Assembly (NCBI GenBank): GCA_900315605.1
Contig: OMZU01000005.1
Coordinates: 27,801 to 91,800, forward strand
Length of the DNA stretch: 64,000 bases
Direction of reading: 5' to 3'
DNA from: an uncultured Eubacteriales bacterium
Lineage (GTDB): Bacteria; Bacillota; Clostridia; Oscillospirales; Acutalibacteraceae
The position numbers were made by a program, and so were the translations under genes. Of the stretch, positions 5,067 to 63,470 are shown in pieces; within the stretch, counting starts at the first letter, position 1; every line of letters begins with the position of its first letter. The notes below the pieces were generated by a model. The model saw nothing but the letters and a program-made list of their open reading frames with translations. It was not told where the DNA came from and searched no databases.

Positions 5067-5084
5067 TATAATAAAACCAACCTA

Positions 5085-42523: not shown

Positions 42524-43822
42524 ATGGCAAAAAATGTAGTTCAAATCCAACCGAACAAGCCGGAACTGCAACAAAGGTCACGGGTGGCAGCCTATGCCAG
42601 AGTGTCCTGCGGTAAAGATACTATGCTGCATTCGCTTGCGGCGCAGATCGATTATTATCGGGAAATGATTATCCGTAACCCGGAATGGAGGTTCGCCGGG
42701 GTGTTCGCTGATGAAGCAAAGACCGGCACCAAAGAGGATAGACCGGAATTCCAAGCCTTGATAGCAAAATGCCGCGCGAAAAAGATAGATATGGTTATTA
42801 CAAAATCCATAAGCAGATTCGCTCGAAACACAGTTACTCTTTTGAAGTATGTCCGCGAATTGAAAAATCTCGGAGTTGATGTATTTTTTGAAGAGCAAAA
42901 CATCCATACGATAAGCGCGGATGGTGAAGTAATGCTCACCCTGCTTGCGTCTTTCGCTCAGGCAGAGAGTTTATCAGTCAGCGAAAACTGTAAATGGCGT
43001 ATCCGCAAGGGCTTTGAAGAAGGCAAATCAACAAGTGTTCGTTTGCTCGGTTATCAACTGATTGACGGGGAGTTCACCATCATCCCCGAGGAAGCGGAAA
43101 CTGTACGCCGTATCTTCAACCTGTATCTTCAGGGATATGGTATTCAGACTATCTCAAATATGTTAGAATCCGAAAACCGCGCTACCGTCTGCGGTGGCGT
43201 TTGGCTTCCAAATAAGGTAGCGGAAATTCTTGACAACGAGAAATATTGCGGAGATTTGCTCCTACAAAAGACAATCGTTCAGAATCACATCGATAAAAAG
43301 ACCATTCTCAATACCGGGCAACTACCGCAGTATCTTATTGAAAATAATCACGATGCGATTATCGACAAGGACATATTTCTTAAGGTGTCGGAAGAACGCA
43401 AACGCCGGGCAATTAACAAAGGAGTCAAGCGAGAGTATTCCGCGTTGACAGGTATGATCCGATGCCCGTATTGCGGAAAGAACTATCGCAGAAAAACCAC
43501 AACGAGATGTATAAAGTGGTGCTGCTCGACCTTTAATTCAAAAGGCAAAAAGTTCTGTCCTGACTCAAAGATGATACCGGAAGATACGGTTATTCAGGCG
43601 ATATGTTCAATGCTCAACATGGACAGTTTTGATGAGAAAAAATTTGTAAAACTGATTGACCATATCGATGCCTGTAAGGAAAACACACTTCGGTTTCATT
43701 TTACAGACGGAAACAGCCGCGATTACGTTTGGGCTGACCGATCACGGGCAGAAAGCTGGACTCCCGAAATGAGAGAAACCGCGAGAAAAAACACTATAAG
43801 GAGGCGCTCAAATGGCAAATAA
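42524..43822 (+). CDS. Large serine recombinase 1
   Basis: 432 residues. Resolvase domain with catalytic Ser28 (AAYARVSCGK) and SISRFARNTV. The recombinase domain (LGYQLIDGEFTIIPEEAETV) follows, then a zinc ribbon with CPYCGKNY and a C...C pair near CCSTFNSKGKKFCPDS. The long coiled coil common in large recombinases is short here. AGGAGGTG precedes the ATG. It overlaps recombinase 2 by 11 bases. Confidence 0.9.
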   Translation: MAKNVVQIQPNKPELQQRSRVAAYARVSCGKDTMLHSLAAQIDYYREMIIRNPEWRFAGVFADEAKTGTKEDRPEFQALIAKCRAKKIDMVITKSISRFARNTVTLLKYVRELKNLGVDVFFEEQNIHTISADGEVMLTLLASFAQAESLSVSENCKWRIRKGFEEGKSTSVRLLGYQLIDGEFTIIPEEAETVRRIFNLYLQGYGIQTISNMLESENRATVCGGVWLPNKVAEILDNEKYCGDLLLQKTIVQNHIDKKTILNTGQLPQYLIENNHDAIIDKDIFLKVSEERKRRAINKGVKREYSALTGMIRCPYCGKNYRRKTTTRCIKWCCSTFNSKGKKFCPDSKMIPEDTVIQAICSMLNMDSFDEKKFVKLIDHIDACKENTLRFHFTDGNSRDYVWADRSRAESWTPEMRETARKNTIRRRSNGK

Positions 43823-45449
43823 AAAAATAACCGTAATTCAGCCGACAAAGCCGCTTCATTCTTCTGATTTTCAGAGTTACTCCAAAAGAAGGCTCGTGGC
43901 TGCATATGCGCGCGTATCTACAGATCACGAGGAGCAGGAAAGCTCGTTTGAAGCACAGGTCAGTTATTACGAACAGAAAATCAAAGCAAACCCTGCGTGG
44001 CAATTCGTAGAGGTGTATTCGGATGAGGGTATTACAGGCACCAGTATGAAAAAGCGCGATGGCTTTAATCGTATGATCAAGGACGCGCTTGCCGGGAAGA
44101 TTGACCTCATCCTTACAAAATCAGTCAGCCGATTTGCTCGAAACACAGTTGACAGTCTCACCACCGTCCGAAAGCTGAAAGATAAAGGCGTTGAGGTGTT
44201 TTTTGAGAAAGAAAACATTTACACGCTCGACTCCAAAGGAGAACTGCTTATAACTATTATGAGTTCGCTTGCTCAGGAAGAAGCGCGGAGCATTAGCGAG
44301 AACACAGCGTGGGGTCATCGTAAAAGATTCGCTGATGGTAAATTCAGCTTAGCTTATTCCACATTTCTTGGTTATGATAAAGGACCCGATGGAGAGTTGG
44401 TGATCAACGAAGAACAGGCTGTCATTGTCAGACGCATTTATGATGATTACCTTGCGGGACTGTCACCCTATACAATAGCAAAACGGCTGACAGAGGATGG
44501 TATAGAAACCCCTGCTCATAAAACTGTGTGGCAAGCAAGCACGGTATACAGTATCCTCAAAAACGAAAAATATTACGGAGCCGCAATTTTACAAAAATGC
44601 ATCACTACTGATTTTTTATCTAAGAAGCAAATCAAAAATACCGGGCAGCTTCCGCAGTATTATATAGCTAACGACCACGAAGCCATCATCCCGCCTGAGA
44701 AGTTCAAAATGGTTCAGGACGAAATGCAGCGACGGGAAGATGCCGGGTTCAAAGCCCAGTGCGTTTCGATTTTTTCCGCAAGAATTGTCTGCGGCGACTG
44801 CGGCGGTTTTTACGGCAGAAAAATCTGGCACGCCGGGTCAAAGTACGCTTCTTGGCGATGGCACTGCAACAACAAATTTCAGAAGCGTAAGTACTGCTCA
44901 ACTCCCACTCTTAAAGAAGAGAGCCTTAAGGAGGCTTTCTTGGAGGTTTTCAACGGGCTTATCAAACGGCGTGATAAAATCGAGAAAAACTACAACCGCT
45001 GCCTTGACGCGATTACAGACACATCCGAATATGAGCGTCAGTTGGAGGAGTTAAACAAAGGCTGTGCCGAGGTTCATCAGCTAATCAAAAGTCTGTTAAT
45101 TTCGCACGGAAAGCAATCAGAGGATGAAAGCATTTCCGATATGTACGCGGAGTATGAGAACCGGCTTGACACTCTCGCAAAACTCAAACAGGAGTTAGAT
45201 ATGAAGATCGCAGCTTGTTCGGCAAAGCGAACTCAGGTCAATGGTTTCCTTAGTGAACTGAAGAAGCACGACCAACCGCTTGTCGAGTTCGATGACCTTG
45301 TGTGGCAGGCAGTGATCCACCACGCCAGAGTTGATAATAACAACACAATCACCTTTGTGTTCCGCGATGGCACTGAGGTCACCACACCCATCAAAAACGG
45401 TGTGAAACCGTACAGAAAGCGAAAGAAGGAGGAGCCTTCGGATGAGTAA
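43812..45449 (+). CDS. Large serine recombinase 2
   Basis: 545 residues, full architecture. The resolvase domain has catalytic Ser36 (AAYARVSTDH) and SVSRFARNTV, and the recombinase domain contains FLGYDKGPDGELVINEEQAV. The zinc ribbon has CGDCGGFYG, and a coiled coil (residues about 400-490) precedes the C-terminal strand IHHARVDNNNTITFVFRDGT. It is the most complete of the three and the best candidate integrase. AAGGAGG upstream; overlaps both neighbours. Confidence 0.95.
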   Translation: MANKKITVIQPTKPLHSSDFQSYSKRRLVAAYARVSTDHEEQESSFEAQVSYYEQKIKANPAWQFVEVYSDEGITGTSMKKRDGFNRMIKDALAGKIDLILTKSVSRFARNTVDSLTTVRKLKDKGVEVFFEKENIYTLDSKGELLITIMSSLAQEEARSISENTAWGHRKRFADGKFSLAYSTFLGYDKGPDGELVINEEQAVIVRRIYDDYLAGLSPYTIAKRLTEDGIETPAHKTVWQASTVYSILKNEKYYGAAILQKCITTDFLSKKQIKNTGQLPQYYIANDHEAIIPPEKFKMVQDEMQRREDAGFKAQCVSIFSARIVCGDCGGFYGRKIWHAGSKYASWRWHCNNKFQKRKYCSTPTLKEESLKEAFLEVFNGLIKRRDKIEKNYNRCLDAITDTSEYERQLEELNKGCAEVHQLIKSLLISHGKQSEDESISDMYAEYENRLDTLAKLKQELDMKIAACSAKRTQVNGFLSELKKHDQPLVEFDDLVWQAVIHHARVDNNNTITFVFRDGTEVTTPIKNGVKPYRKRKKEEPSDE

Positions 45450-46908
45450 CGCTATACCTATTATTATAGAGCCTCATGAGCCGGAACGCGGCAAATACCG
45501 TGTAGCCGCGTACTGCCGCGTTTCAAGTTCAAGCGATGAGCAGATGCACAGTTATTATGCGCAGGTTGGCTATTACAAAAAATTGTTTGCCGAGGTCGAT
45601 TCCTACGTCTTTGTCGGGGTCTACGGCGATGCCGGTATTTCCGGCACAAGAACTTGTAATCGTGATGGCTTTCTAAAATTGATTGAGGATTGCCGAAACG
45701 GACTGGTAGATTGTATATGGACAAAAAGCGTGTCGCGGTTTGGGAGAAATACCGTTGACACGCTTATTTTTACACGAGAGTTGCGCAACCTTGGAATCGA
45801 TGTATTCTTTGAAAAGGAAAACATACACTCAATAGATTCTTCCGGCGAATTGCTTTTGACGTTAATGGCGGCCTTCGCTGAATCTGAATCGAAAAATATG
45901 TCAGATAATATTGCTTGGGGTAAACGGCGAAGGTTTGCAGAGGGATTGGTACAGACAATTACGATAGGCAATTTGCTCGGCTTCCGGCAAGAAAACGGTG
46001 TCGTTACGGTTGTGGAAGAAGAAGCCGAAATAGTCCGTAAGATTTTTCAAAAGTATCTGGACTGTTACAATTTTGGAGAAATTGCGGAGATGCTGAATCA
46101 GGAAAACGCTCCCAAGCGATTCAAAGGAAAATGGAGCAGAACGGAAGTTAGAAATATTATACTGAACGAAAAGTACGCCGGGGATTGTTTGCTGCAAAAA
46201 TATTATGTAGTTAATCCGCTTGAACACAAACGCGCTCCGAATACAGGTCAGTTAGCACAGTATTTCGTAGAAGGATGTTTCCCTGCCATTGTAAAAAAAG
46301 ACGACTGGCTTGTTGCTCAGGAGATGGCAAAAAGCCTCTCGAACAGAAGTGTAGTCAACAGCGATGAAAGACCGTTCGTAGGAATGATGTACTGTGCCGT
46401 TTGCGGAAAGCAGTGTAAAATCCATACCACGGTAGGTATGGGCGGTAATCCACTGCGAAGATACAGGTGTGTGAGTTTTAAAGATAACAGCGGTGTGGAA
46501 ATACCCGGAATGACATATGTTCGTCCTCACACCTCGCGGTACATAAAGAACCCTACACCGAAGCTAAAAGCGTGGAGAGAAAAATACGCGCCGCCCCGGA
46601 TGACGAGACAATATTATTGTTCCGACACCAGAATCGAAGCCGATCACCCTTATGAAGTGTTTATCAAGGCGTGGAACTATCTCGTTACCAACAGGCAACG
46701 ATACCTTCCTACTATATATAATATGATAAGCGCGGAAGATGTCCTGCTCCGATTCAATGCTTCGGTAATGTACAAATTACTCAGCAAGGGTGATATGCTC
46801 CACGAATTTGACACACGATTATTCAGAAAAACCGTTGACCGAATCGAGGTACATCCTTCCGGCAAACTGACATTTATGTTCAAAACAGGCTTAAAAATCA
46901 CGAAATAA
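45442..46908 (+). CDS. Large serine recombinase 3
   Basis: 488 residues. Catalytic Ser28 (AAYCRVSSSS), SVSRFGRNTV and the recombinase domain NLLGFRQENGVVTVVEEEAE are present. A zinc ribbon (CAVCGKQC) is followed by an unusual segment with YVRPHTSRYIKNPTPKLKAW and a C-terminal strand LTFMFKTGLKITK. The coiled coil is reduced. AAGGAGGAG upstream; overlaps recombinase 2 by 8 bases. All three would be made together; they may form mixed complexes or act at different steps. Confidence 0.9.
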   Translation: MSNAIPIIIEPHEPERGKYRVAAYCRVSSSSDEQMHSYYAQVGYYKKLFAEVDSYVFVGVYGDAGISGTRTCNRDGFLKLIEDCRNGLVDCIWTKSVSRFGRNTVDTLIFTRELRNLGIDVFFEKENIHSIDSSGELLLTLMAAFAESESKNMSDNIAWGKRRRFAEGLVQTITIGNLLGFRQENGVVTVVEEEAEIVRKIFQKYLDCYNFGEIAEMLNQENAPKRFKGKWSRTEVRNIILNEKYAGDCLLQKYYVVNPLEHKRAPNTGQLAQYFVEGCFPAIVKKDDWLVAQEMAKSLSNRSVVNSDERPFVGMMYCAVCGKQCKIHTTVGMGGNPLRRYRCVSFKDNSGVEIPGMTYVRPHTSRYIKNPTPKLKAWREKYAPPRMTRQYYCSDTRIEADHPYEVFIKAWNYLVTNRQRYLPTIYNMISAEDVLLRFNASVMYKLLSKGDMLHEFDTRLFRKTVDRIEVHPSGKLTFMFKTGLKITK

Positions 46909-47265
46909 TACGCAAAAATCAGGGTCCCTGCTGCCGTTGTGTAACAGGGATTTCTTGCTTTTTCCAATTGAATTATTGCTAATTTAGCAAGGATGATATT
47001 GCTTTTCTCGTTTGATATATTGGCATAATTCACTCGATTTTTGACTCGATTTTTGTTACACACTTTTGGGTTTTTGGGGTATTTCTCAACTTCACTCGAA
47101 ACTACTAATGAAATTCTTAGTTGATTATTCGATGCATATCGACAGGGCTTCTTGCCGGTCATAGCCCAAATAACCCAGATTCTAAGCCATTATTTGAAGT
47201 TGCACCCCTTTATGCACCCCTTTGGCATTTTGGGGTGATGAAAATTAAATTGTATCAATGGAACG
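46909..47265. other. Right junction of the prophage, probable attachment region
   Basis: 357 bases without a gene. A weak hairpin (TCCCTG/CAGGGA) follows recombinase 3. Short tandem repeats lie here: ACTCGATTTTTG near 47032-47057 and GCACCCCTTT twice near 47202-47221. The sequence then joins in frame to a serine-recombinase gene lacking its first half, so the integration crossover is probably within about 30 bases of 47240-47266. The exact core cannot be fixed without the left end. Confidence 0.5.
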
Positions 47266-48099
47266 GTGCAGACGCAGAAGACGTATATTTCTGATTTTCT
47301 CTCAAAAAAAGTCAAGAAAAACAACGGGGAGCTTCCGCAGTATTACGTTGAGAACGGTCACGCGCCGATCATAATTCCGGCAGACTGGGACGTTGTGCAG
47401 GAGGAGATCGCCCGCAGAAAGGAAGCGGGCAAAGCGTACAGCTCCGCCACCGTTTTGTCTTCTAAGCTGATCTGTGAGGACTGCGGCGGGTTCTTCGGCA
47501 TAAAAGTCTGGCACTCCACCGACAAATACCGCAGAGTAATCTACCGCTGCAACAACAAATACGCAAACAAAACGCCCTGCCGCACCAACCATTTCACGGA
47601 GGAAGAAGTCCATAAAATGTTCTTGGCGGCGTATAACGAGTACATGGGCAACCGTGAAAATATAATCCGCGGAGCAGAAAAAATGTGCCGCGTTCTATCC
47701 GATACGACCGACCTGACGCGGAAGCTTGAACAGAAAACGGCACAGCGTGAAACCAAGGCTGAACTATACCGCGCTTGGATTTCTCAGGGAGCCGGGGCGC
47801 GCAGCGAAAACTTCAAGAAGCGCGAGGAACAGCTGTACGCCGACTATGACGCGCTTGATAAGGAGGTCAACGCGCTCACGAAAAAAATCGCAGATATCAA
47901 CAACCGTCATACCAAGCTCGTCAATTACATCAAAGGCTTGCAGGAAAAACCGCTGATCCTCGAAAAGTGGGATACCGCCATGTGGATCACAACCATACGT
48001 CACTGCATTGTCCACCGCGACGATTCGATCACTTTTGTTTTCAGGGACGGCGCAAAAATAGATATTCAGCCTGTGGGCAGAACGCGGGGGATTATATGA
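47266..48099 (+). pseudogene. Large serine recombinase lacking its catalytic domain (3' part only)
   Basis: 277 residues remain, beginning in the recombinase domain (KTYISDFLSKKVKKNNGELP). They then show the zinc ribbon (CEDCGGFFG), the coiled coil and the C-terminal strand HCIVHRDDSITFVFRDGAKI. The N-terminal resolvase domain with the catalytic Ser is absent, and homology begins abruptly at about 47264 after non-coding DNA. The simplest reading is that the prophage inserted into this gene; its 5' part should then lie at the left end, outside the window. GTG 47266 is only the first in-frame start. Confidence 0.8.
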
Positions 48100-48323
48100 C
48101 ACGGGACAAAGATATCGGCAAAATACTTCGCAGCAGACGGCTGGAGCTTGGCATGACACAGGAGCAGGTTGCGCTGAAGCTCGGCATGAGCATTCACCAA
48201 TACCAGCGTTACGAATACGGCGAACACAGGTTTCCGAACATTCCGATGAGGATCGGGCTTCGGGTCTGCACCGTGCTTGAACTCGACCCGTTTGAGTTAT
48301 TGCCAATCAGCAAGGACGAATAA
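48096..48323 (+). CDS. Xre family regulator, 75 residues
   Basis: ATG 48096 overlaps the stop of the truncated recombinase. A single helix-turn-helix domain: IGKILRSRRLELGMTQEQVA, LGMSIHQYQRYEYGEHRF, and LRVCTVLELDPFELLP. As the last gene of the interrupted recombinase operon it probably regulated that element. After the insertion it may be expressed only from readthrough. Confidence 0.85.
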   Translation: MTRDKDIGKILRSRRLELGMTQEQVALKLGMSIHQYQRYEYGEHRFPNIPMRIGLRVCTVLELDPFELLPISKDE

Positions 48324-50402: not shown

Positions 50403-51170
50403 ATGACACAGCTTGAAAGAAGAAAGTATTTAATCAATTATCTGCTCTCCGAAAGAAATGAATCGGCGGATATTCCAAAGGACGAATACAGTCAGAAGCG
50501 CCTTTTGCGTTCGCTTTTCAATATCCGTATGCCGAAACCGGTCAGCGAGGAATTTGCAACAATTCAGGACGAATATATGCAGGAAGAAACCGCGCGTAAG
50601 GACATTACCGATATTACTGACTTAATACCTATGGAAAAAGACATCTATCTTTGGCAGGGCGACATCACTACGCTGAAATGCGACGCGATCGTCAATGCCG
50701 CCAACTCGCAAATGCTCGGCTGCTTTAGTCCCTGTCACGGCTGTATCGACAACGCCATTCACACTTTTTCCGGCGTTCAACTCAGAAATATCTGTTATAA
50801 GATTATGAAAGAGCAAGGTCACGATGAGCCGACAGGTCTGGCAAAAATCACACCTGCGTATAATCTGCCTTGTAAGTATATCATTCATACCGTCGGCCCG
50901 ATCGTCAGCGGCAGGCTTACGGCAGAGGATTGCGAGCTACTCAAAAGCTGTTACCTTTCCAGCTTGAATCTCGCTGAGGAAAACGGTGTGAAAAGTATAG
51001 CCTTTTGCTGTATCTCGACCGGCGTTTTCGGATTTCCGCAAAGAGAAGCGGCAGAAATAGCTGTGAAAACTGTCAGAGAGTTCAAAGAAAAAACAGGCAA
51101 CAAAATAAAGGTTATTTTCAATGTATTCAAAGACGAGGATTTATTGATTTACAAGAAGGTGTTGAAATGA
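50403..51170 (+). CDS. Zinc-containing macrodomain, protein ADP-ribosyl hydrolase
   Basis: 255 residues. A helical N-terminal extension (about 75 residues) precedes the macrodomain: WQGDITTLKCDAIVNAANSQ, GCFSPCHGCIDNAIHTFSG with the Cys/His zinc site, and CCISTGVFGFPQREAAEIAV. This is the zinc macrodomain type encoded beside class M sirtuins, which removes ADP-ribose from modified proteins. It overlaps the sirtuin gene by 4 bases (ATGA). Confidence 0.92.
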   Translation: MTQLERRKYLINYLLSERNESADIPKDEYSQKRLLRSLFNIRMPKPVSEEFATIQDEYMQEETARKDITDITDLIPMEKDIYLWQGDITTLKCDAIVNAANSQMLGCFSPCHGCIDNAIHTFSGVQLRNICYKIMKEQGHDEPTGLAKITPAYNLPCKYIIHTVGPIVSGRLTAEDCELLKSCYLSSLNLAEENGVKSIAFCCISTGVFGFPQREAAEIAVKTVREFKEKTGNKIKVIFNVFKDEDLLIYKKVLK

Positions 51171-52156
51171 AAAACATATGGAAGCAACAGCCCGACGGCT
51201 ATCGGGATACAATTGAGCAGGGTTTGAACGCTGTCCGTTTTTTTGATCAGGGGATCATCTCTGACTTTCTTTCAAAAGAAGAAAGTATACAAAAACTCAA
51301 GGAAGTGATTGCCGATGCTGACGCGATCGTCATAGGCGCGGGCGCGGGATTATCTACTGCGGCAGGCTTTACCTACAGCGGCGAGCGGTTTCAAAAATAC
51401 TTTTTTGACTTTGCGCAGCGCTTCGGTATCAACGATATTTACTCGGGCGGGTTTTATCCCTTCCCGGACAAAGAGACTTTCTGGGCATGGTGGGCGCGCC
51501 ATATTTATTACAACCGCTATATCGACGCGCCGAAGCCCGTCTACGGTAATTTGCTGAGGCTGGTTAAGAACAAGGAATATTTCGTCATCACAACCAACGT
51601 TGACCATCAGTTTCAGAAGGCAGGCTTTGACAAAACCCGTTTGTTCTATACGCAGGGCGATTACGGTCTGTTCCAAAGCGTTAACCGAAACATTCAAAAG
51701 ACCTACAACAATGAAGAATGGGTCATAAAAGCGTTGGAAGCGCAGGGCTTTGTTAAGGACGAAAACGGCGTGTATCAGCCGCCTGCTAACGGAAAGCTTT
51801 TAATGCGCATTCCGACTAAGCTTATCCCGAAATGCCCCAACGATGGCAGTGATATGACGCTGAACCTGCGCTCAGACGATTCTTTTGTTGAAGACGAGGG
51901 CTGGCACAAAGCCTCTGCCGCCTATGCGGATTTTCTGAGCCGCCACAAAGCCGATCGCGTTCTCTATCTTGAGATCGGCGTGGGGGCAAACACCCCGGTC
52001 ATCATAAAATATCCGTTCTGGCAGATGACGCTTCAAAACGATAATGCGACCTACGCCTGTCTGAACTATAACGAGGCGTTCTGCCCGGTTGAGATTCAGA
52101 TACAGTCGATCTGTATAAACGGCGACGCGAATGAGATAATACGAAAACTGCTTTAA
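51167..52156 (+). CDS. Class M sirtuin (SirTM), NAD-dependent ADP-ribosyltransferase type
   Basis: 329 residues from ATG 51167. NAD-binding motif IGAGAGLSTAAGFTYSG (from about residue 56). The TTNVDHQFQKAGF segment carries the NID-type motif, and the distinctive insert FWAWWARHIYYNRYIDAPKP is also present. SirTM proteins add ADP-ribose to a partner protein, and the adjacent macrodomain reverses this. In staphylococci and streptococci the partner is a lipoylated GcvH-like protein; none is present here, so the substrate may differ, possibly the FMN/ferredoxin protein. Confidence 0.92.
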   Translation: MKNIWKQQPDGYRDTIEQGLNAVRFFDQGIISDFLSKEESIQKLKEVIADADAIVIGAGAGLSTAAGFTYSGERFQKYFFDFAQRFGINDIYSGGFYPFPDKETFWAWWARHIYYNRYIDAPKPVYGNLLRLVKNKEYFVITTNVDHQFQKAGFDKTRLFYTQGDYGLFQSVNRNIQKTYNNEEWVIKALEAQGFVKDENGVYQPPANGKLLMRIPTKLIPKCPNDGSDMTLNLRSDDSFVEDEGWHKASAAYADFLSRHKADRVLYLEIGVGANTPVIIKYPFWQMTLQNDNATYACLNYNEAFCPVEIQIQSICINGDANEIIRKLL

Positions 52157-52175
52157 AAGACTATTAAATTCTCTG

Positions 52176-52207
52176 CCCTGTCGAGATAATCGGCAGGGTG
52201 GTTTTTT
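52176..52207 (+). terminator. Terminator of the sirtuin operon
   Basis: CCCTGTCG (52176-52183) pairs with CGGCAGGG (52191-52198) with one wobble, followed by TGGTTTTTT. Confidence 0.8.
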
Positions 52208-52250
52208 ATTGCAAATCACGTCTCTACCGACGTAGACGAGCTTTCATATG

Positions 52251-52284
52251 TATGGTATATATGTACTTACCATAATGGTATAAA
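52251..52284 (+). promoter_or_regulatory. Palindromic control region of the recombinase-Fic operon
   Basis: TATGGTA (52251-52257), ten bases, TACCATA (52268-52274), then a further ATGGTA half-site overlapping TATAAA (52279-52284). This looks like an operator on a -10 element; no good -35 is present, which suggests activator dependence. Confidence 0.45.
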
Positions 52285-52350
52285 AGTAACAGTCGGAGGG
52301 AGGTTTTGCATGATTGCTCAATACACATTTTTGGCTTTGGAGGTGAGACT

Positions 52351-54546
52351 ATGGATGACGTCAGGCACGCCGCCAAGGAACGCGCTGCCCGACCGAAGAA
52401 AGCCCCTGTAGGCTCAAGCTTCGAGTCGGAACGTCAGCGCGAAAAGAATGCCCTTGTCCGCCAGCTTGACGCTCAGGACGGCAGAAACGTACACAAGATT
52501 TCCGCCGCTCCCGAAATACCGGAGGGCGAGCGCGTGCTGCGTGTTGCTGCATATTGCCGTGTATCTACCGACGACATTGACCAGAAGCTTTCCATTCATC
52601 TGCAGATACAGCAGTATATGAAGCGTATCAAGGAAAACCCCAACTGGAAATACGCCGGCTGTTATGTCGATGACGGCTTCTCGGGAACAAATACAGCTCA
52701 CCGGCAGGGCTTCCAGAAGCTGATGAAGGACGCGATGGACGGCAAGATCGATATGATCATCACCAAAGCTGTCTCCCGTTTTGCCCGTAATCTGATGGAC
52801 TGTATTGGCTGGGTAGAGGCTTTGCAGAATCACGATCCGCCGATAAGGGTGTTTTTTGAACAGGAGAACCTCGACACCATGTCGCAGACGAGCGGTATCA
52901 TCCTGTTTGTACTCGCCATGGTCGCGCAGGAAGAAAGCCATATGAAAAGCGAGGCGATCCTGCTCTCGCTCGAATGGCGTTTCAGCAGAGGTCGCTTTCT
53001 CACCCCGCGCCTGTTCGGGTATGACAAAGTCGAAGTTCCCGACGGGTTCGGAGGCAAAAAGAAAATCCTGTCCGTCAACGAGAGCGAGGCACGTGTGGTT
53101 CGCTGGATGTACTCGACTCTTGTCAACGGCGGCACGCCGGAGGAGATGGCAGATGTTCTCACCGAAATGGCGATCCCCACAGGCGGAAGACGGCGTGACG
53201 GTACGCTGAACACACATTGGACGGCAGGCGGGATTGTCTCTATCCTGCGAAACGAAAAGCACTGCGGCGACGTTCTCGCGCGAAAGACATATACGCCGAA
53301 TTACAAAGATCACAAATCCAAAAGGAACAACGGCAAGAAGAATAAGTATTTTCAGCCTGATCACCACGAGGCTATTGTTTCAAGAGCAACGTGGAACGCG
53401 GCACAGCGTATTCTGAACAGCCGAAGGTACAGGCACGAAGGCACTTACCTCCCGATGCGGATCATTGACCACGGCGCTCTGACGGGATATATCTCGATGA
53501 ATCGTTCTTGGGCAGGCTTTGATTTCGAGGACTATTACCGCGCAGGACAGATCGCAATGGGTATTCTCGATGAAGACCTTGAGGTCGATCTTGAAACGGA
53601 ATATCTGCCCGAAGCCGGTCGTAAGCTCGGCGGACTCGTGGACGACCACGGCATCTCCCGTATAGCCCGTGACCTTACCGCCGCCGAACAGGAGATCAAG
53701 GACGAGCTTGAAGGCAAGGCTGTGGAAGAAGCAGAAGCTGTTGATAAGGAAAACGCCGCCAAGACGTTTCAGGTTGTCAGCGGTAATATGTTCTCCCGTG
53801 CCCGCGACCCGGTTCTCTGCATTACAACAACCGGGATTACCTTCAATAAAACCTGTGTGGATAAGCTACATAAAGTCACACATGTAGAGCTGCTGTTCAA
53901 TCCGGTAGAGCGAATCATTATTGTGCGACCGTGCTCATCCGATCATCCTAACGCGATTGTCTGGGATTCCAAATACAAGAGTGCGGGACCGTTGGCAAAA
54001 GTGCTGTATAACAGCATGGGCTGGGAAACAGACTATACTTTCCGTATTCCCTGTCAGGTGATACGCAACACGAACATGTCACCCTCGACAGGCACGGTTC
54101 TCGCTTTTGATCTGGATAACTATATCGGTCGCACTACAGGCAAAAAGGACGAGGTAATTATCCCCGCAAAAGAACCCGACTCGCCTGCCTATGAAGAGCA
54201 CGATGAAGCCAAAAGCTATTACTATCCTCCCGACGAGGATGAGCCGCAGGAAATACGCGAAATGGAAGAAAAGTTTCAGCAAGCTGTTGATCTCAACAAC
54301 AAGCTTTTCGGGACGCCTGTTTTTCAGTATGAAGAAGGCATCAGAAAGCTTTGCTCAGACACATCAGGAGACGATTGGGAAATGCTGACTCCGGCGAGAC
54401 CGCTGGATATTTCTCACACGGTCGACGCCGAAACGGTTGACAGCCTTCTGCTTGAGATCATTGACGATCCTCCCGTTCTTCCGCCGCAGTCACAGGAGTA
54501 TCCGAATACTCCGATCAATGTCAATATCAGCAGCGAGGAGGTGTAG
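52351..54546 (+). CDS. Large serine recombinase fused to a long unknown C-terminal extension
   Basis: 731 residues from ATG 52351 (GGAGGTGAG 5-8 bases upstream; an in-frame TTG at 52306 is less likely). A basic N-terminal extension of 65 residues precedes the resolvase domain: catalytic Ser72 in AAYCRVSTDD, and AVSRFARNLM. The recombinase domain runs to about residue 345. It lacks the usual Cys zinc ribbon. In its place lies a 380-residue extension containing, at about 473-590, a domain repeated in the genes at 55370 and 56155 (FNKTCVDKLHKVTHVELLFN, then NPVERIIIVRPC and MGWETDYTF). An acidic tail follows. Confidence 0.85.
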   Translation: MDDVRHAAKERAARPKKAPVGSSFESERQREKNALVRQLDAQDGRNVHKISAAPEIPEGERVLRVAAYCRVSTDDIDQKLSIHLQIQQYMKRIKENPNWKYAGCYVDDGFSGTNTAHRQGFQKLMKDAMDGKIDMIITKAVSRFARNLMDCIGWVEALQNHDPPIRVFFEQENLDTMSQTSGIILFVLAMVAQEESHMKSEAILLSLEWRFSRGRFLTPRLFGYDKVEVPDGFGGKKKILSVNESEARVVRWMYSTLVNGGTPEEMADVLTEMAIPTGGRRRDGTLNTHWTAGGIVSILRNEKHCGDVLARKTYTPNYKDHKSKRNNGKKNKYFQPDHHEAIVSRATWNAAQRILNSRRYRHEGTYLPMRIIDHGALTGYISMNRSWAGFDFEDYYRAGQIAMGILDEDLEVDLETEYLPEAGRKLGGLVDDHGISRIARDLTAAEQEIKDELEGKAVEEAEAVDKENAAKTFQVVSGNMFSRARDPVLCITTTGITFNKTCVDKLHKVTHVELLFNPVERIIIVRPCSSDHPNAIVWDSKYKSAGPLAKVLYNSMGWETDYTFRIPCQVIRNTNMSPSTGTVLAFDLDNYIGRTTGKKDEVIIPAKEPDSPAYEEHDEAKSYYYPPDEDEPQEIREMEEKFQQAVDLNNKLFGTPVFQYEEGIRKLCSDTSGDDWEMLTPARPLDISHTVDAETVDSLLLEIIDDPPVLPPQSQEYPNTPINVNISSEEV

Positions 54547-54548
54547 AT

Positions 54549-55349
54549 ATGCAAGCGTCAAGAAATCCCGCCAAAAGCCGTCCGCTGTCAGCAAACGTGA
54601 AACGCCTGATGCGCTTGGCGAGAGCTTCTCCGAAGAATGACAGCATCATCGTGCTGCAAAGGGAGTTTACCGCGCGCGAATACGCCTACTGTCATAAGCA
54701 GGGCAATCTTTTCATGGAAGCCGCGTCAATGGGTATCGGCATGGAAGAATTTGCTCCGCTCTTTATGACCAGCCAGCTTGCCGGTGTTTTCGACGTCAGC
54801 TTTGCGGCGGCGTGCGGTATTGAGAACGACGAGCTTTCCAATCTGCTTAGGATACCCATCCTGCTGAAAAGCCCTGAAACTATTGTTGAGGCGCTGTACT
54901 GGATCGACGATATCATTTCAAAAGCCGGGGACGGCGAAAACAAAAGCCTGCTTCTTTCACAGGCATATAACGCGGAAATGCTCCGGCTTCCGGCAGCTCT
55001 GTCGGAATTGCCCGAGGAGCCGAACAGGAATATCGACGAGTTAGCTTACGCATACTGGTTAGGATACATTTACCGGTGCGAATGTCTGCTTCACGAGGAA
55101 TCAAGCCGTATGGTTTACGGCGCTTTCAGTGAAAAGGTCATGAGGAAGGCATACGAAGAGCTGCTTAAAAGTCCACTGAACAGTGCCGACCTGACAGACA
55201 GCGCCATGGAAATATGCTCGGAGCTTGACAGACTGCTCGTGGAAAAGATATGGCCTGCGAAGTCGAAACAGCGAAAACTATTGCAGGATAAAGAGCTGGA
55301 ACGGCAGTCACAGTTTTCAAAGCAAAAACCAATAAAACAAATGAAGTAA
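54549..55349 (+). CDS. Unknown helical protein of the recombinase-Fic operon
   Basis: 266 residues. Basic N-terminus (MQASRNPAKSRPLSANVKRL), helical body, and the segment ELAYAYWLGYIYRCECLLHE followed by SSRMVYGAFSEKVMRKAYEE near residue 175-215. That YWLGYxYR-x-SS pattern resembles, from memory, a helical family found in toxin-antitoxin-like loci in Clostridia. A basic tail ends the protein. GAGGAGG lies before the ATG, two bases after the recombinase stop. No enzyme motif seen. Confidence 0.55.
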   Translation: MQASRNPAKSRPLSANVKRLMRLARASPKNDSIIVLQREFTAREYAYCHKQGNLFMEAASMGIGMEEFAPLFMTSQLAGVFDVSFAAACGIENDELSNLLRIPILLKSPETIVEALYWIDDIISKAGDGENKSLLLSQAYNAEMLRLPAALSELPEEPNRNIDELAYAYWLGYIYRCECLLHEESSRMVYGAFSEKVMRKAYEELLKSPLNSADLTDSAMEICSELDRLLVEKIWPAKSKQRKLLQDKELERQSQFSKQKPIKQMK

Positions 55350-55369
55350 AAAAGGAGGTCTGACGACTT

Positions 55370-56158
55370 ATGGCGGAAAACATTCAGCCTTGGTCACAAT
55401 CAAGACAGGGATACCGACCCGGCCCGCAGAATCCTCAGCGCATGTCATATCCCGGATTTCCGAAGCCCACGGCGACAAACCCACAGGGTATGAACGGTTT
55501 GACGCGGGAAGAACGGCAGGAAGCGAAACGGCTTGCCGAAGAAGCAAACTTTAATTTCAGCGGGTATCAGGTGGTGCGCAGAGAATTTATCTCCCACCGC
55601 TTTGACCCGGCTATGACCATTCGCGGCAACAGCATCACGTTCAACAACTCCTGTATCAGCAAGCTGGAGGACGCGACATATATTCAGTTCCTGATCAATC
55701 CCGAAGAACGCAAGCTCGCGATAAGACCTTGCGAGGAAGGAGCACGTGACGCGGTTCGTTGGTGCGTCGTTCGCGGTGATAAGCGAAAGAGCCGTGAAAT
55801 CACCTGCAGACCGTTTACAACCAAACTATACGAGCTTATGGGCTGGGAACAAATATACAGGTACAAGCTTCAGGGTATGAAGATCACCTATCAGGGGGAG
55901 AATCTGTATTTGTTTGACTTATGCGCAAAAGAAGCGTTCCTGCCTCAGACCCGCGATCCCGAAACGGGAAAAATCAAACGCCCGAAACCCATTCTGCCGA
56001 AAGAGTGGCTGGAAACATTCGGAATGACCGTTGACGAACATCTTGCTTCTACGCAGGTTGATTTGTCAGAAGGCTTCGTTTCATCCGGTATTACACCGCC
56101 GGAAAACAATACAACTATTTCAAATCCCGATAAAGAACCTATGGAGGTAGTCGAGTGA
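55370..56158 (+). CDS. Unknown protein repeating the recombinase extension domain
   Basis: 262 residues. Proline/Gln-rich N-terminus (QPWSQSRQGYRPGPQNPQRM), then from about residue 64 the repeated domain: FNNSCISKLEDATYIQFLIN with NPEERKLAIRPC, and YELMGWEQIYRYKLQG. The C-terminus has QTRDPETGKIKRPKPILPKE and an Asp/Glu-rich end. Because the same domain ends the recombinase and fills the next protein, these may assemble together. AAAGGAGG upstream. Function unknown. Confidence 0.6.
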   Translation: MAENIQPWSQSRQGYRPGPQNPQRMSYPGFPKPTATNPQGMNGLTREERQEAKRLAEEANFNFSGYQVVRREFISHRFDPAMTIRGNSITFNNSCISKLEDATYIQFLINPEERKLAIRPCEEGARDAVRWCVVRGDKRKSREITCRPFTTKLYELMGWEQIYRYKLQGMKITYQGENLYLFDLCAKEAFLPQTRDPETGKIKRPKPILPKEWLETFGMTVDEHLASTQVDLSEGFVSSGITPPENNTTISNPDKEPMEVVE

Positions 56159-56508
56159 ATACTCAAATTATAATGACATTGAATTTGCCGGAAGATTCTA
56201 TTCTTCTGAACGAAGGTGTATTAGCGGCTCTGGACAGACCGCGTCAAGTCCAGATCCTGATCAACAAAGAAGAAAAAATACTGCTTCTCCGCTCCTGCAC
56301 TGTTGACGACCTGCAGGCTGTCGTGGTACCCGATGAACGCGCCATGCAGTTTGAAATCAGCGGGAGGAGTTTCTTAAAAAAGATTCGGAAGCTTGTCGGC
56401 TGGAACGATGACCGCCCGAGAATGTGTTACGGCGAATATATCCCCTCTCATCAGGCGATTCGGTTCAGGCTTGATGACGCTCAGCCTGTAGAGATCGAAG
56501 CCCGATAA
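56155..56508 (+). CDS. Minimal single-domain version of the repeated unknown domain
   Basis: 117 residues from GTG 56155, overlapping the previous stop (GTGA). Almost the whole protein is one copy of the domain: LNEGVLAALDRPRQVQILIN, NKEEKILLLRSC and IRKLVGWNDDRPRMCYGEYI line up with the copies at about 473-590 of the recombinase and 64-185 of the previous gene. GGAGGTAG precedes it. It could be a subunit or antagonist. Function unknown. Confidence 0.6.
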   Translation: MNTQIIMTLNLPEDSILLNEGVLAALDRPRQVQILINKEEKILLLRSCTVDDLQAVVVPDERAMQFEISGRSFLKKIRKLVGWNDDRPRMCYGEYIPSHQAIRFRLDDAQPVEIEAR

Positions 56509-56530
56509 ACTGCGCACGAGGAGGCAGAAA

Positions 56531-58966
56531 ATGAATCGAGAAAAACTGTTTAAAAATCTGGAAAAGCGTTATACATCAAAACGCGATATGATTTCGCGCA
56601 TACCCCTCGGCGTTAATCCCGACTCTCTGTGGCAGGAGCTGCTGAATCTTCGACGTTCCTCAAGCACAGTTCTGCCTCTGTACAGCTGTAACGGGAAACC
56701 GTACTGGTATGTGACAACAGAAAAAATGGTCGCGTCGAGCGAAAAAATCGTGGACGCACTGTTTGAAAATGAAACGGAACACGACCCATACGCCGAGCCG
56801 CTGCCGGTGATGACGCTGGAGGAAGTGTTCTTCACGGGCTACATAGAAGGAGCCCAGATTACCCTTCGGGCGGCGATGGATTTTCTGACAGGAGAACAGC
56901 CGCCGCGTGACATTGAGGAACAGCTGATCGTCAATAATCGAATGGCGGGCAGTTATGCTTCCGAAAATTTGTACAGACCGATTGACGCTGATTTCATGCG
57001 CGAGCTTATCGGCATTCTGACGGACGGCATGGACACCGGCGGTCAGGATTACCGTTTCACCGACGAGACGGATTATATCTCTGCTGACGGTGAACTGTTA
57101 CAGTTCCCTCCCCCACACGTTATCCCCGAGCGCGTCAACGCGCTGTGCGGTTTCCTCAATGAGCAAAACATACATCCTCTGATAAAAGCGGCGATAGCGC
57201 AGGCATATCTGATCGTCACCCGACCGTTCCCCGAAGGAAATGAACGGCTGGGGCGTATCCTTTCCTGTATGATCCTTTTGCGGTCGGGATACTCTTTTTT
57301 CAGCGACGTCAGCCTTTCCGCTCTGATTGCCCGTCGGAGTTATGCGTATTATGAGGCCGCCGCAAACATACTCCGCGAGGAGAACGAGGGCGACATGACC
57401 TACTTCGTAGAGTATTACCTTGAGCTGCTGTCACGCGCCGTTGACGAAAGGCGCCTGCGCATACAAAATGCCGAAAACGAGCTGCGACAGGCAGAGATAG
57501 AAATGGCACGAACGACCTTGTCACCTCCTTCTCATACGGGTCCTCCGGGGAACATGACAGCCGCTCGGGAAAAGGAGGTTATCGCTGAAGAAAATGAATT
57601 CCCCGATGGATTCCATACCGTTTCAGCCAACGAGCCGGAGCAGTCTTTTGATGGCGGCAATGGTTTTGAAATCAGTTTAGCCCGCATTAAGGACAGGTTA
57701 TATGAGATGATTGGCGGAAAAGGAGAAATCTCCAAAAAATGTTCTAAGGTACTGCTGAAGCTGTTTGATGAAGGCGTGTATTCTTTCAATTCTGAGGATT
57801 TTGTTCAAAGGTGCGGCGTATCCCGAAATTCGGCGAGCGTATTTATCGGGCATTTGCGCGAAAGGGGACTTATTGAATACGGAGATCAGTCTCCGGGAGA
57901 ATACAAGACTTATCGGGTAAAATCAGATCTTCCTCCGCTTTTACCCGGCGATTACGCCCCAAGTATACTAAACACTATCCGAGAGTTGCAGCACTCTGAA
58001 ACATCCGAAAACGACAGGCGTCTTGGAGATCTGTTATTATCCTGCCTGCCAAAAGGTCTGATTACAGCAGCAGACTATGAACAGTACAATGTCATCGAAA
58101 AGATGCCGTCAGAAATGTCTCTTCCTTTGCAGATGGGGTTGGTTACAAAGGTCACCCGGCACGTTTACAGAATAAACAGAAACGTGAGCAAGGAAACCAT
58201 TTTAATCACAGAGACAACAAAAAAGGTTCTGTCGATTGTTTACCGGAATTTCGGGCATGAGTGGTTTACGCGAAAAACCGTAATGCCGGTTTTGAACAAA
58301 TGCAAGTCAGCTGTCGACAAAGAGCTTCACAGGTTATCTCAGCTGCATATTTTTGAATGTCAGAACGAGTCACCGCATAAATATCGCCTGCTTGTTGACC
58401 CGGAAACGCACCCCACCTTCTTTGCCGAAAACACTGTTCCCTTAGCAGATACCGCGCCGGTCACGGAACAGAACGACGCAGACTATTCCGACGAGGTCTA
58501 TGAGCTTATCAATACACTTGCAGCATCCGAGTTTTCCACAAGAGACCGGCGTCTCGGAACGGTCATGCAGCAATGCATAGAGAAAGGTACACTTTTCAGG
58601 AGCGACTATGACGACTGGGGATACACGGAGAACATGTGGAGCATTGATACGGAACTCGCGGTACAGCTCGGTCTCATCAGCAAGGAGTCGCCTGACTGCT
58701 ATTCTCTGAATAAAGAGCTACGTCCCGAGCTTCGCCCGACGCAAAAGAAAACACTGACCGCAATCTACGAGGCTTTCGGTTACGAGGAGTTTTCTTCGGA
58801 TATGTTTATCGCCACACTGAATTATTCCGTCTCCTACACCTATGCTTCCCTGCACAAGCTGACGCTGCTGCGTTTATTGGATCAAAACATCGATGAAAAC
58901 GGCAACCGCTACCGACTCGTTGTCACTCCCGAGGATAATCCCGAGTGCTTTGAGCCCGCGGCATAA
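56531..58966 (+). CDS. Fic-like protein with substituted catalytic His and duplicated C-terminal half
   Basis: 811 residues. N-terminal Fic-fold: the inhibitory-helix pattern T102-G-Y-I-E106-G107 matches [S/T]xxxE[G/N]. The active-site loop reads RPFPEGNERLGR at 231-242, where canonical Fic has HPFxxGNGRxxR, so His231 is Arg and the second Gly is Glu. AMP transfer is therefore unlikely. After a linker rich in Glu/Pro come a winged helix (about 400-470: KVLLKLFDEGVYSFNSEDFV) and two tandem copies of a 150-residue unit: ENDRRLGDLLLSCLPKGLIT... and TRDRRLGTVMQQCIEKGTLF.... Probably a DNA-binding regulator. GAGGAGG upstream. Confidence 0.75.
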   Translation: MNREKLFKNLEKRYTSKRDMISRIPLGVNPDSLWQELLNLRRSSSTVLPLYSCNGKPYWYVTTEKMVASSEKIVDALFENETEHDPYAEPLPVMTLEEVFFTGYIEGAQITLRAAMDFLTGEQPPRDIEEQLIVNNRMAGSYASENLYRPIDADFMRELIGILTDGMDTGGQDYRFTDETDYISADGELLQFPPPHVIPERVNALCGFLNEQNIHPLIKAAIAQAYLIVTRPFPEGNERLGRILSCMILLRSGYSFFSDVSLSALIARRSYAYYEAAANILREENEGDMTYFVEYYLELLSRAVDERRLRIQNAENELRQAEIEMARTTLSPPSHTGPPGNMTAAREKEVIAEENEFPDGFHTVSANEPEQSFDGGNGFEISLARIKDRLYEMIGGKGEISKKCSKVLLKLFDEGVYSFNSEDFVQRCGVSRNSASVFIGHLRERGLIEYGDQSPGEYKTYRVKSDLPPLLPGDYAPSILNTIRELQHSETSENDRRLGDLLLSCLPKGLITAADYEQYNVIEKMPSEMSLPLQMGLVTKVTRHVYRINRNVSKETILITETTKKVLSIVYRNFGHEWFTRKTVMPVLNKCKSAVDKELHRLSQLHIFECQNESPHKYRLLVDPETHPTFFAENTVPLADTAPVTEQNDADYSDEVYELINTLAASEFSTRDRRLGTVMQQCIEKGTLFRSDYDDWGYTENMWSIDTELAVQLGLISKESPDCYSLNKELRPELRPTQKKTLTAIYEAFGYEEFSSDMFIATLNYSVSYTYASLHKLTLLRLLDQNIDENGNRYRLVVTPEDNPECFEPAA

Positions 58967-58992
58967 AACACCTATCCCCATCAAAAAAACAT

Positions 58993-59039
58993 GGCAAGGC
59001 TGCAATCACTCAGCTCGAATTGCAGTCTTGCCGTTTTTT
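58993..59039 (+). terminator. Strong terminator of the recombinase-Fic operon
   Basis: GGCAAGGCTGCAAT (58993-59006) pairs with ATTGCAGTCTTGCC (59019-59032) with one wobble, followed by six T. Confidence 0.9.
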
Positions 59040-59188
59040 CTTTTCAAAACGCCCCACGTTTGCCCTGTGTCGCGTTATAATTTTTCTTGGATAAATTCTC
59101 AATTCAGCACTGAAAACGCGCTGTGGGGCAACACGTCGCGGCAGTGAGGCAGTAAAGCAAAAAGCGAAAACTATCCGCTAAGTATTTC

Positions 59189-59217
59189 TTTACAAAGAAC
59201 CCGGAGTCGGGTATAAT
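59189..59217 (+). promoter_or_regulatory. Promoter of the HTH-nuclease-like gene
   Basis: TTTACA (59189-59194), 17 bases, TATAAT (59212-59217). The gap from 59040 to 59188 shows nothing else. Confidence 0.8.
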
Positions 59218-59251
59218 AGTGGCAGAAAGACTAAATGAAAGCCGTTGAAAA

Positions 59252-60046
59252 ATGATTCGAGAACAAACAGAACGAAAAATATGTGCGGCGATCTGTCAAA
59301 GCAACGGACTGAAAGCCAAGGATATCGCCCGGCAGTTGAACCTCGACAGGAGCACGGTGAACCGCGTCCTGTATGCGTCGCCGCTTCTGAAGGATTTGTG
59401 CTATCAGGATGACGATTACCGGTGGCACGGCATTATCCGGCAGTCCGTTCCGCATGACGGCTTATATGAGTTTTCAGGGTATTACGCAATGGTTTCGGAT
59501 TTTGTGAAGCTGACCGAAGACGAGTGGATGGACGAGCTGATTAAGGGCTGTCAACGAATCGGACGTAATCTCAACGATACGCGCGGTCTGCTTCACTCTT
59601 TCCGCGATTGCAGGGAACAAATAATCAATCTCTTCGCCGACTTGCAAGATATGCTTGGCAACGCCTGTCTGGATTGGGAGATCGCTTTTGAGTTCAGGCT
59701 GAAACGAGGTCGATATGTTCGCATTTACGCGGACGTTCTTGTGATTACGGAAAACAAGGTTTTCTCTTTGGAATTCAAAATGAAAGACAAAATTGATTCT
59801 GAGGAAGTTTCCCAAGCAGCGAAGTATGTTCCGTATCTTGAAATCGTATTCGGCACTGACTATGAGATAATTCCCGCTTTGGTGCTTACCGCAGCAAAGG
59901 ACTATTTTGATTTCGCAGCAATCGGCAGAAGTGATTCAATCCTCCCCGTTTGCTCGGGTGATATGCTGTTCAATGTGTTTGACGAGTATCTGGGATTTTT
60001 GTCGGATGAATCAAATACCAATAATGCTTTTCGAGCAAAAGAATAG
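59252..60046 (+). CDS. HTH protein with PD-(D/E)XK nuclease-like domain
   Basis: 264 residues. Residues 5-50 are a helix-turn-helix (SNGLKAKDIARQLNLDRSTV). The C-terminal half contains RYVRIYADVLVITENKVFSL leading to LEFKMKD, giving Asp161, Glu174 and Lys176 in the D...ExK order of PD-(D/E)XK nucleases, with Gln188 in the following helix. Related N-terminal domains occur in DUF2075-type proteins. It may cut DNA or be a nuclease-fold regulator. It has its own promoter directly after the recombinase-Fic operon. The ribosome site is weak. Confidence 0.65.
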   Translation: MIREQTERKICAAICQSNGLKAKDIARQLNLDRSTVNRVLYASPLLKDLCYQDDDYRWHGIIRQSVPHDGLYEFSGYYAMVSDFVKLTEDEWMDELIKGCQRIGRNLNDTRGLLHSFRDCREQIINLFADLQDMLGNACLDWEIAFEFRLKRGRYVRIYADVLVITENKVFSLEFKMKDKIDSEEVSQAAKYVPYLEIVFGTDYEIIPALVLTAAKDYFDFAAIGRSDSILPVCSGDMLFNVFDEYLGFLSDESNTNNAFRAKE

Positions 60047-61732: not shown

Positions 61733-61759
61733 ATTATATGACGTGTCAAAAATTATCAT

Positions 61760-61897
61760 GACGAATCGCTCAATAGATTTCAGACCGTCTTTCCTGCCTG
61801 CGGAAGCAGCAACAGCGCTATTGAACTGACACTGCCGGAGCTTGAAAAACACTCGCAGTATGTGGCTTGGGTAGATATCAGCAAGAACCAATTATGA
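61760..61897 (+). pseudogene. Duplicated 3' fragment of the YbaK-like gene
   Basis: 45 residues in frame (DESLNRFQTVFPACGSSNSA ... WVDISKNQL) with a TGA at 61895-61897 match the C-terminus of the intact copy ending at 63436 (WVDVGKSQL). The upstream part is missing. Left by a duplication with deletion. Confidence 0.85.
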
Positions 61898-61965
61898 TTG
61901 GTTAAAAATTTCTCCTAAAATTCTCCGCTAAAAAAAGCGAAGGTTTATGTTGTAAACTTCACACA

Positions 61966-63000: not shown

Positions 63001-63436
63001 ATATGGTATTGAAGACAGGATTCAGGAATTTGAGGTATCAAGCGCAACGGTAGAGCTCGCCTCAAAAGCACTTAACTGTGAGCCTTGCAGAATCGCTAAA
63101 ACGTTGTCGTTTATGGTGAACGGCGCCCCGATTCTTATCGTCACTGCCGGGGACGACAAAATCGACAACGGAAAATATAATGCGCAGTTTGGAGCAAAAG
63201 CAAAAATGCTCAAGGCTGATGAGGTGACGCAATTGATCGGTTACTCAGTCGGCGGTGTTTGTCCTTTTGCGGTCAATGACGGTGTCAAAGTTTATCTGGA
63301 GGAATCGCTCAAAAGATTTCAGACCGTCTTTCCTGCCTGCGGAAGCAGCAAAAGCGCTATCGAGCTGACACTGCCGGAGCTTGAAAAATACTCCCAGTAT
63401 GCAGCTTGGGTAGATGTCGGCAAGAGCCAATTATGA
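62987..63436 (+). CDS. YbaK/EbsC-like aminoacyl-tRNA deacylase, 5' end eroded
   Basis: About 149 residues; conserved core EDRIQEFEVSSATVELASKA, CRIAKTLSFMVNGAPILIVT, GDDKIDNGKYNAQFGAKAKM and VGGVCPFAVNDGVKVYLEES. The family removes misattached amino acids from tRNA. There is no ATG/GTG/TTG in frame near the expected start: the N-terminal REYGIEDRIQEF seems to have lost a few residues and runs back into the EFR1 gene in another frame. Either a non-ATG start at 62987-62993 is used after GGAGAGG, or the gene was truncated by fusion and is not translated. Confidence 0.7.
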   Translation: MQIREYGIEDRIQEFEVSSATVELASKALNCEPCRIAKTLSFMVNGAPILIVTAGDDKIDNGKYNAQFGAKAKMLKADEVTQLIGYSVGGVCPFAVNDGVKVYLEESLKRFQTVFPACGSSKSAIELTLPELEKYSQYAAWVDVGKSQL

Positions 63437-63470
63437 TCCGTGATTGGCTGAATCAGAAATAAAAATATTT

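What the first reader, a model, noticed from the sequence alone, without database searches (positions are those of the whole stretch)
52251..60046. Candidate undescribed system: serine recombinase-extension fusion, repeated partner domains, inactive-looking Fic and an HTH/PD-(D/E)XK protein
Five tightly packed genes (gaps of 2-22 bases or overlaps) form one operon with a palindromic control region and a strong terminator. A recombinase with an intact catalytic Ser lost its zinc ribbon and gained a 380-residue extension. The extension's core domain recurs in two further proteins of the operon. The last gene is a Fic-fold protein with both a substituted active site and a duplicated winged-helix-rich C-terminus. 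A nuclease-fold protein follows under its own promoter. The domain set suggests programmed DNA inversion or excision controlled by a non-catalytic Fic sensor, or a defence/anti-mobile-element device. I know of no described system with this composition.
Basis: partly seen in the sequence, partly recalled or inferred. Interest (0 to 1): 0.9.

Follow-up and report, generated by a model that had tools for sequence, protein, structure and literature searches.

The report
Phage recombinase module with shared domains
A gene cluster shared by gut phages and mobile islands pairs a DNA-cutting recombinase, in which the usual zinc-binding part is replaced by a new domain, with two small proteins made of that same domain; what it does in the cell has not been tested.

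Summary
The operon is real, and it recurs. RX (window 52351-54546) is a serine recombinase with an intact active site. Its zinc ribbon is replaced by a domain, here called X, that also makes up the partners W3 and W4. RX-W3-W4 is a module of phages and islands. Of 160 loci examined, 32 (type A, as in the window) carry a Fic-fold protein and mostly W2; 100 (type B, 63 on viral contigs) carry a protein I call ParB-like and/or a DUF6551 protein; 28 are cut or other. The catalytic Ser is kept in 120 of 121 distinct RX sequences that cover it; the Fic histidine is Arg in 26 of 26. In 28 of 144 RX loci a Ser-less recombinase-like gene lies just upstream. Published streptococcal phage Phi1207.3 has the split form: orf2, a resolvase without zinc ribbon, and orf3, an X protein. 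The best (weak) fold match of X is MraZ, a DNA-binding protein. Two type A loci are bracketed by an inverted palindromic site. I read it as an accessory recombination complex of phages, many of which carry tandem serine integrases. Function is untested; the flanking gene W6 is not part of it.

The parts
52173..52201 (+). Intrinsic-terminator-like hairpin with T run after the upstream gene, directly outside the site
   Evidence: hairpins outside the other sites were read by eye
52217..52236 (+). Degenerate copy of the conserved palindromic site ACGTCTGnnCAGACGTRGA
   Evidence: this copy is one of those the matrix was built from; next best in window scores 14.0 against 31.7
52233..52261 (+). Promoter-like TAGACG-17-TATATA abutting the site
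   Evidence: sequence only; not among the promoter-like sites
52351..54546 (+). W1 = RX, serine recombinase without zinc ribbon, with C-terminal X domain (X about 53758-54051)
54549..55349 (+). W2, no family; in 28 of 32 type A loci, 0 of 100 type B, 5 of 28 cut or other
55370..56158 (+). W3, X-domain protein
56155..56508 (+). W4, minimal X-domain protein
56531..58966 (+). W5, Fic-fold protein with duplicated C-terminus
57221..57256 (+). Substituted Fic motif RPFPEGNERLGR
58983..59042 (+). Terminator-like inverted repeat after W5
48138..48323 (+). HTH_3-type gene; homologous DNA lies just upstream of RX in eight relatives, here 3.9 kb away
59252..60046 (+). W6, HTH-like protein; flanking gene, not a conserved part

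Best explanation
RX-W3-W4 is an accessory site-specific recombination complex of Firmicutes temperate phages, many of which also carry tandem large serine integrases; the window holds a copy in a genomic island beside such an integrase array. RX is the catalytic subunit. X domains, probably DNA-binding and MraZ-like, stand where ordinary large serine recombinases have the zinc ribbon and coiled coil that place and steer them (role recalled). W3 and W4 supply further X domains, so RX, W3 and W4 probably assemble on DNA arms and set which sites pair and in which direction. Exchangeable partners (W2 and pseudo-Fic, or ParB-like and DUF6551, sometimes a Ser-less recombinase) would gate the reaction, most plausibly prophage integration and excision. 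Shown: homology, architecture, conservation, phage context. Inferred: complex, DNA binding, recombination, control.
For: Shared RX-X-X core in two partner settings (22 complete type A and 84 complete type B of 160 loci). Catalytic Ser in 120 of 121 covering RX sequences, both SRFAR arginines in 124 of 124. No zinc ribbon. X shared by RX, W3 and W4. MraZ is the first row for two models (weak). Split form in Phi1207.3 at the left end, tandem integrases at the right end. At least two further serine recombinases of 380 aa or more on 42 of 87 loci of 14 kb or more. HTH repressor-like gene next to RX in relatives.
Against: No recombination site for RX is shown. Of 45 type B loci with at least 7 kb beyond the DUF6551 gene, 21 have no opposing integrase gene within 9 kb, and 35 of 87 long loci have no second recombinase of 380 aa or more. 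A recombinase-fold protein could act only as a regulator. The MraZ match is below the tool's trust level, and profiles give no sequence link. X proteins without RX exist (G433, G454). All-RX monophyly is unresolved.
Confidence: 0.44

Rival explanations
1. Lysogeny regulator: RX and the X proteins act mainly as an immunity or regulatory complex next to the phage repressor; the recombinase fold is used for DNA binding.
For: Position beside HTH genes; Ser-less relatives in 28 of 144 RX loci; MraZ-like fold; palindrome abutting a promoter-like box. Precedent from a search listing only: SPbeta MrpR master repressor, PMC10516654 (that it has a tyrosine-recombinase fold is recalled).
Against: RX keeps the catalytic motifs tested, which a pure regulator would not need.
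Confidence: 0.17
2. Type A is an autonomous mobile element: RX moves the stretch between two inverted palindromic ends, placed next to terminators.
For: Inverted sites bracket the gene array in L034 (33 nt, 97%) and L027 (27 nt, 81%); right sites also in L033 and L038; the 30-nt match begins 28-43 nt after the last gene in the three measured, L033, L034 and L038; different left neighbours (HTH gene in relatives, another gene in the window); in L045, L106 and L107 similarity ends at the Fic stop and different genes follow.
Against: Only two loci show both ends; most type A loci with flanks show neither or one; of 81 type B loci, 80 have no flanking inverted repeat above the shuffled level; the right site also looks like a promoter; in L027 the central dinucleotides differ; no empty site found; breakpoints between related loci share no motif.
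Confidence: 0.14
3. Anti-phage or superinfection-exclusion device.
For: Prophage position; SoFic PADLOC hit for W5 (2.4e-32); restriction-type genes within about 8 kb after the operon in L106 and L107.
Against: SoFic-type catalytic motif lost; no PADLOC match for W2, W3 or W4 and only a weak JetB match (0.032) for RX; neighbours vary and look like cargo.
Confidence: 0.13
4. Programmed inversion switch (phase variation) by RX.
For: Inverted sites in L027 and L034.
Against: No inverted isomer of the operon in 95 similar locus pairs; three pairs, all with L078, show an inverted block, at the locus edge. The promoter-like boxes sit at the inner side of the sites, so inversion would change little.
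Confidence: 0.06

Closest known systems
Phi1207.3 / Tn1207.1 orf2 resolvase with orf3 (Streptococcus phages; PMC4260502, AY657002)
   Same: Serine recombinase without zinc ribbon (37% identity to W1 over 363 aa) followed by an X protein (profile probability 98.1 for the 98% identical phi-SsuNJ5_rum copy); third recombinase of a phage with tandem integrases
   Different: X is a separate protein; one X only; no W2, Fic, ParB-like or DUF6551 partner in the 8.7 kb of phi-SsuNJ5_rum searched; orf3 is a hypothetical protein in the record
Large serine recombinases (phage integrases, CcrA/CcrB)
   Same: Resolvase and Recombinase domains, active-site motifs
   Different: No zinc ribbon; X domain instead; partner X proteins
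MraZ
   Different: No sequence-profile link; different genomic setting
Fic AMP transferases / SoFic
   Same: Fic fold with C-terminal extension
   Different: Catalytic His replaced by Arg, GNGR by GNER or GNDR, in 26 of 26
SPbeta MrpR
   Same: A phage master repressor (listing seen only); a recombinase fold used as repressor (recalled)
   Different: Tyrosine-recombinase type (recalled); here serine type with catalytic motifs kept

Membership tests
Large serine recombinase | Resolvase catalytic domain with active-site Ser and Arg motifs | tested here: met
Large serine recombinase | PF07508 recombinase domain | tested here: met
   E 9.6e-18
Large serine recombinase | Zinc ribbon PF13408 | tested here: not met
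   (two of the three neighbouring integrases do match it); no CxxC after residue 320
Large serine recombinase | Coiled coil in the zinc domain | not tested
   none
Large serine recombinase | Site-specific recombination between att sites | not testable with these tools
   needs biochemistry
Fic AMP transferase | Fic fold | tested here: met
   Pfam match; no model made
Fic AMP transferase | HPFx[D/E]GN[G/K]R motif (PMC2686095, abstract in listing) | tested here: not met
   26 of 26 distinct sequences
SoFic defence | PADLOC SoFic profile | tested here: met
   E 2.4e-32; NCBIfam's adenylyltransferase Fic model scores 31.1 against a cut-off of 550
SoFic defence | Anti-phage activity | not testable with these tools
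   none
MraZ | Double beta-alpha-beta-beta fold | tested here: inconclusive
MraZ | Sequence profile similarity | tested here: not met
   probability 0.66 or less
Invertible DNA switch | Inverted recombination sites flanking the segment | tested here: inconclusive
   both sites in L027 and L034; none above shuffled level in 80 of 81 type B loci
Invertible DNA switch | Both orientations observed | tested here: inconclusive
   none seen at the operon in 95 assembled locus pairs; reads not available

The most novel reading that the evidence does not exclude
A multi-subunit serine recombinase machine: the single-chain zinc ribbon and coiled coil of large serine integrases is replaced by an MraZ-like assembly made of RX and two X proteins, tuned by catalytically dead paralogues (a Ser-less recombinase, a His-less Fic), and used by gut and streptococcal phages beside their tandem integrases.
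Probability: 0.33. Interest if true: 0.82.

Novelty: new variant of a known kind. Interest (0 to 1): 0.62.

Why it matters
How serine integrases choose direction is usually explained by one chain with a coiled coil plus a small directionality factor (recalled). This module would be a natural case in which that part is removed and supplied by other proteins. It is found in many human-gut phage sequences and has a relative in a well-known resistance prophage, so knowing it would help to understand how these phages settle and leave.

Tried and rejected
Rejected: W6 as part of the system (one other locus only among 183 fetched, many of them short). X as a sliding clamp: Foldseek's top rows for W3 are clamps but weak (best E 0.016), PCNA for W4 (0.03), while the slower aligner puts MraZ first; profiles link X to neither DnaN, AbrB nor MraZ (highest probability 1.14). 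X in solved structures by sequence: none at E 1 or less. Empty-site test with the window's flanks: the flanking genes are themselves patchy (25 of 60 and 5 of 60 genus genomes), so no junction could be compared. Common end motif at block edges in four locus pairs: none. Flanking repeats in type B: in 80 of 81 nothing above the shuffled level; L080 has one. Genome-wide search for the palindrome with up to 2 mismatches: 3 of 391 genomes, the same number as the reversed control pattern (3), only one of them an RX locus; an exact scan of viral contigs gave 9 contigs, none with a match to the operon's proteins by tblastn. Tree: type A RX (8) and Ser-less relatives (14) each monophyletic (support 1.0), all RX together not resolved (best split support 0.098).

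Limits: the 160 loci are the best 80 of 120 and the best 80 of 105 and include near-copies. They were found with W3, so X without W3 is under-counted. ORFs were called mechanically; gene labels rest on BLAST to the window and phage proteins. Type B means a hit to the ParB-like or the DUF6551 protein.

Papers: PMC4260502 and PMC9226167, passages seen; PMC2686095 and PMC10516654, listing and start of abstract only.

Full report
Observation. The five genes, their spacing, the control region, the terminator-like hairpin, the missing zinc ribbon, the related extension and the altered Fic motif are all in the sequence. The start of W1 is probably 52351. W6 is a flanking gene: by BLAST among the ORFs of 183 fetched loci only L029 carries it besides the window; many contigs end early.

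What surrounds it. The window holds a tailed-phage prophage (primase, terminase, portal, capsid, tape measure, endolysin) that ends with three tandem serine recombinases (42524-46908), a recombinase fragment (47266-48099) and an HTH_3 gene (48138-48323). Then come about 3.9 kb of genes that I name by eye Rrf2, NmrA, ferredoxin and sirtuin-like, plus a macro-domain gene (Pfam), then the operon. In relatives L025, L027, L028, L030-L032, L034 and L035 DNA homologous to the HTH gene lies directly before RX, so in the window either these genes were inserted or the operon moved (inference). Only 2 of 60 genus genomes, its own counted (G000, G015), and 4 of 98 genomes in all have W3; 10 of 391 class genomes have X, its own counted, among them G433 and G454 whose X proteins stand alone in the stretches read.

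Relatives. W3 finds 25 phage records (20 listed), largely gut phages; those I opened (PV036411, PV036410, PV036458, later PV036453, PV036445, PV036413) are labelled Ca. Heliusvirales. In the first three, RX-W3-W4 (all annotated as hypothetical proteins) is followed by a protein that I call ParB-like by eye (no Pfam match in the two scanned) and a DUF6551 protein (two scanned); PV036453 has genes of the same sizes in the same order. In 160 loci (the best 80 of 120 and of 105) I count 100 type B, 32 type A (Fic) and 28 cut or other; full gene order in 84 and 22; W2 in 28 of 32 type A, 0 of 100 type B and 5 of 28 others. 63 of the type B and 7 of the type A loci are from the viral collection. The RX motifs are kept: Ser in 120 of 121 sequences that cover it (4 of 125 gapped, 1 Leu), both SRFAR arginines in 124 of 124. 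The Fic histidine is Arg in 26 of 26, and the motif's second Gly is Glu in 24 and Asp in 2. In 28 of 144 RX loci a gene for a 200-249 aa resolvase-like protein lies directly upstream; 27 read YIR[YF]FNQT and one YIRTHH where RX has YxRVST, so the Ser is lost; the two scanned match Pfam Resolvase, one of them below its cut-off.

The split form. Streptococcus phages phi-SsuNJ5_rum and Phi1207.3 carry a 370 aa recombinase without zinc ribbon and, next to it, a 138-139 aa X protein. The Phi1207.3 paper calls orf2 a resolvase (Resolvase and Recombinase domains only), reports three serine recombinases and places the tandem pair orf56-57, both with zinc ribbon, at the other end (passages). Two gut phages (PV036445, PV036413) have a similar split pair, 399-404 aa and 145-155 aa. 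Fusion in one line and separate neighbours in another is the usual sign that two domains work together.

Sites. In type A loci a palindrome ACGTCTGnnCAGACGT abuts a TAGACA-like box; it is found left of RX in the window, L025, L027, L028, L030-L032, L034, L040 and L044, and in reverse orientation at the right in L027, L033, L034 and L038. Only L027 and L034 show both; the other type A loci scanned, L104-L110 among them, gave none over the threshold at the operon's ends. The four right sites have TAGACA-17-TAnnAT pointing inward. A matrix made from nine of these sites (which match by construction) found L033's right site and also weaker places inside or away from the operon in L025, L027, L053, L104 and L105 (identical), L124 and L141, and none in 30 shuffled loci. 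They may be ends of a mobile unit or paired promoters with one operator; I cannot decide.

Modularity. L045, L106 and L107 share about 7.3 kb at 88-90% up to the Fic stop; beyond it, within about 8 kb, lie different genes: CoiA-UvrD; a C5 methylase and an AAA_5 gene; an EVE-AAA_5 gene and a type I restriction subunit. L055 and L058 share only 5.5 kb at 96% by megablast. Edges compared in four pairs show no common motif. So the module is exchanged between elements, with no sign in type B that it moves itself.

Verdict. A recurring accessory recombination module of phages, not described in the papers I could search (nine searches; one search was swamped by plant invertases), best placed as a new variant of serine recombinase systems. 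The Ca. Heliusviridae paper does not use the words integrase, invertase or recombinase in its main text. What the module works like (a recombinase with outsourced DNA-binding domains) is inferred.

Noticed in passing
window 42524-48099: Three tandem serine recombinases at the end of a tailed-phage prophage, followed by a C-terminal recombinase fragment (47266-48099); the third has no zinc ribbon match, and the RX search aligned only its recombinase part, not X.
   Followed up: partly
L078 1-1840 vs L079 1-1840: Two RX-bearing loci, 99% alike further in, differ at their edge: a stretch of about 630 bp is inverted (85% identity), and a gene that I read as TetR-type, whole in L078, is split in L079 into two pieces of opposite orientation.
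   Followed up: partly
L324 7639-8031, L325 7585-7977: X-domain proteins of 130 aa in clostridial genomes, no RX in the stretches read.
   Followed up: partly
L034 9282-9662, L040 7101-7493: A further, very divergent X-like protein after the Fic gene (W4 profile E 5.4e-10 and 0.0012).
   Followed up: partly
window 50403-52156: Macro-domain gene next to a gene that looks sirtuin-like by eye (Pfam gave no support), in a cluster seen partly in genus genomes G035 and G055.
   Followed up: no
window 61738-61898 and 63276-63437: A 162-bp repeat, 89.5% identical, 1.5 kb apart.
   Followed up: no
window 5079-5165: SAM riboswitch near the prophage's early genes; a gene with an S-AdoMet synthetase N-terminal match lies 10 kb further on at 15505.
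   Followed up: no
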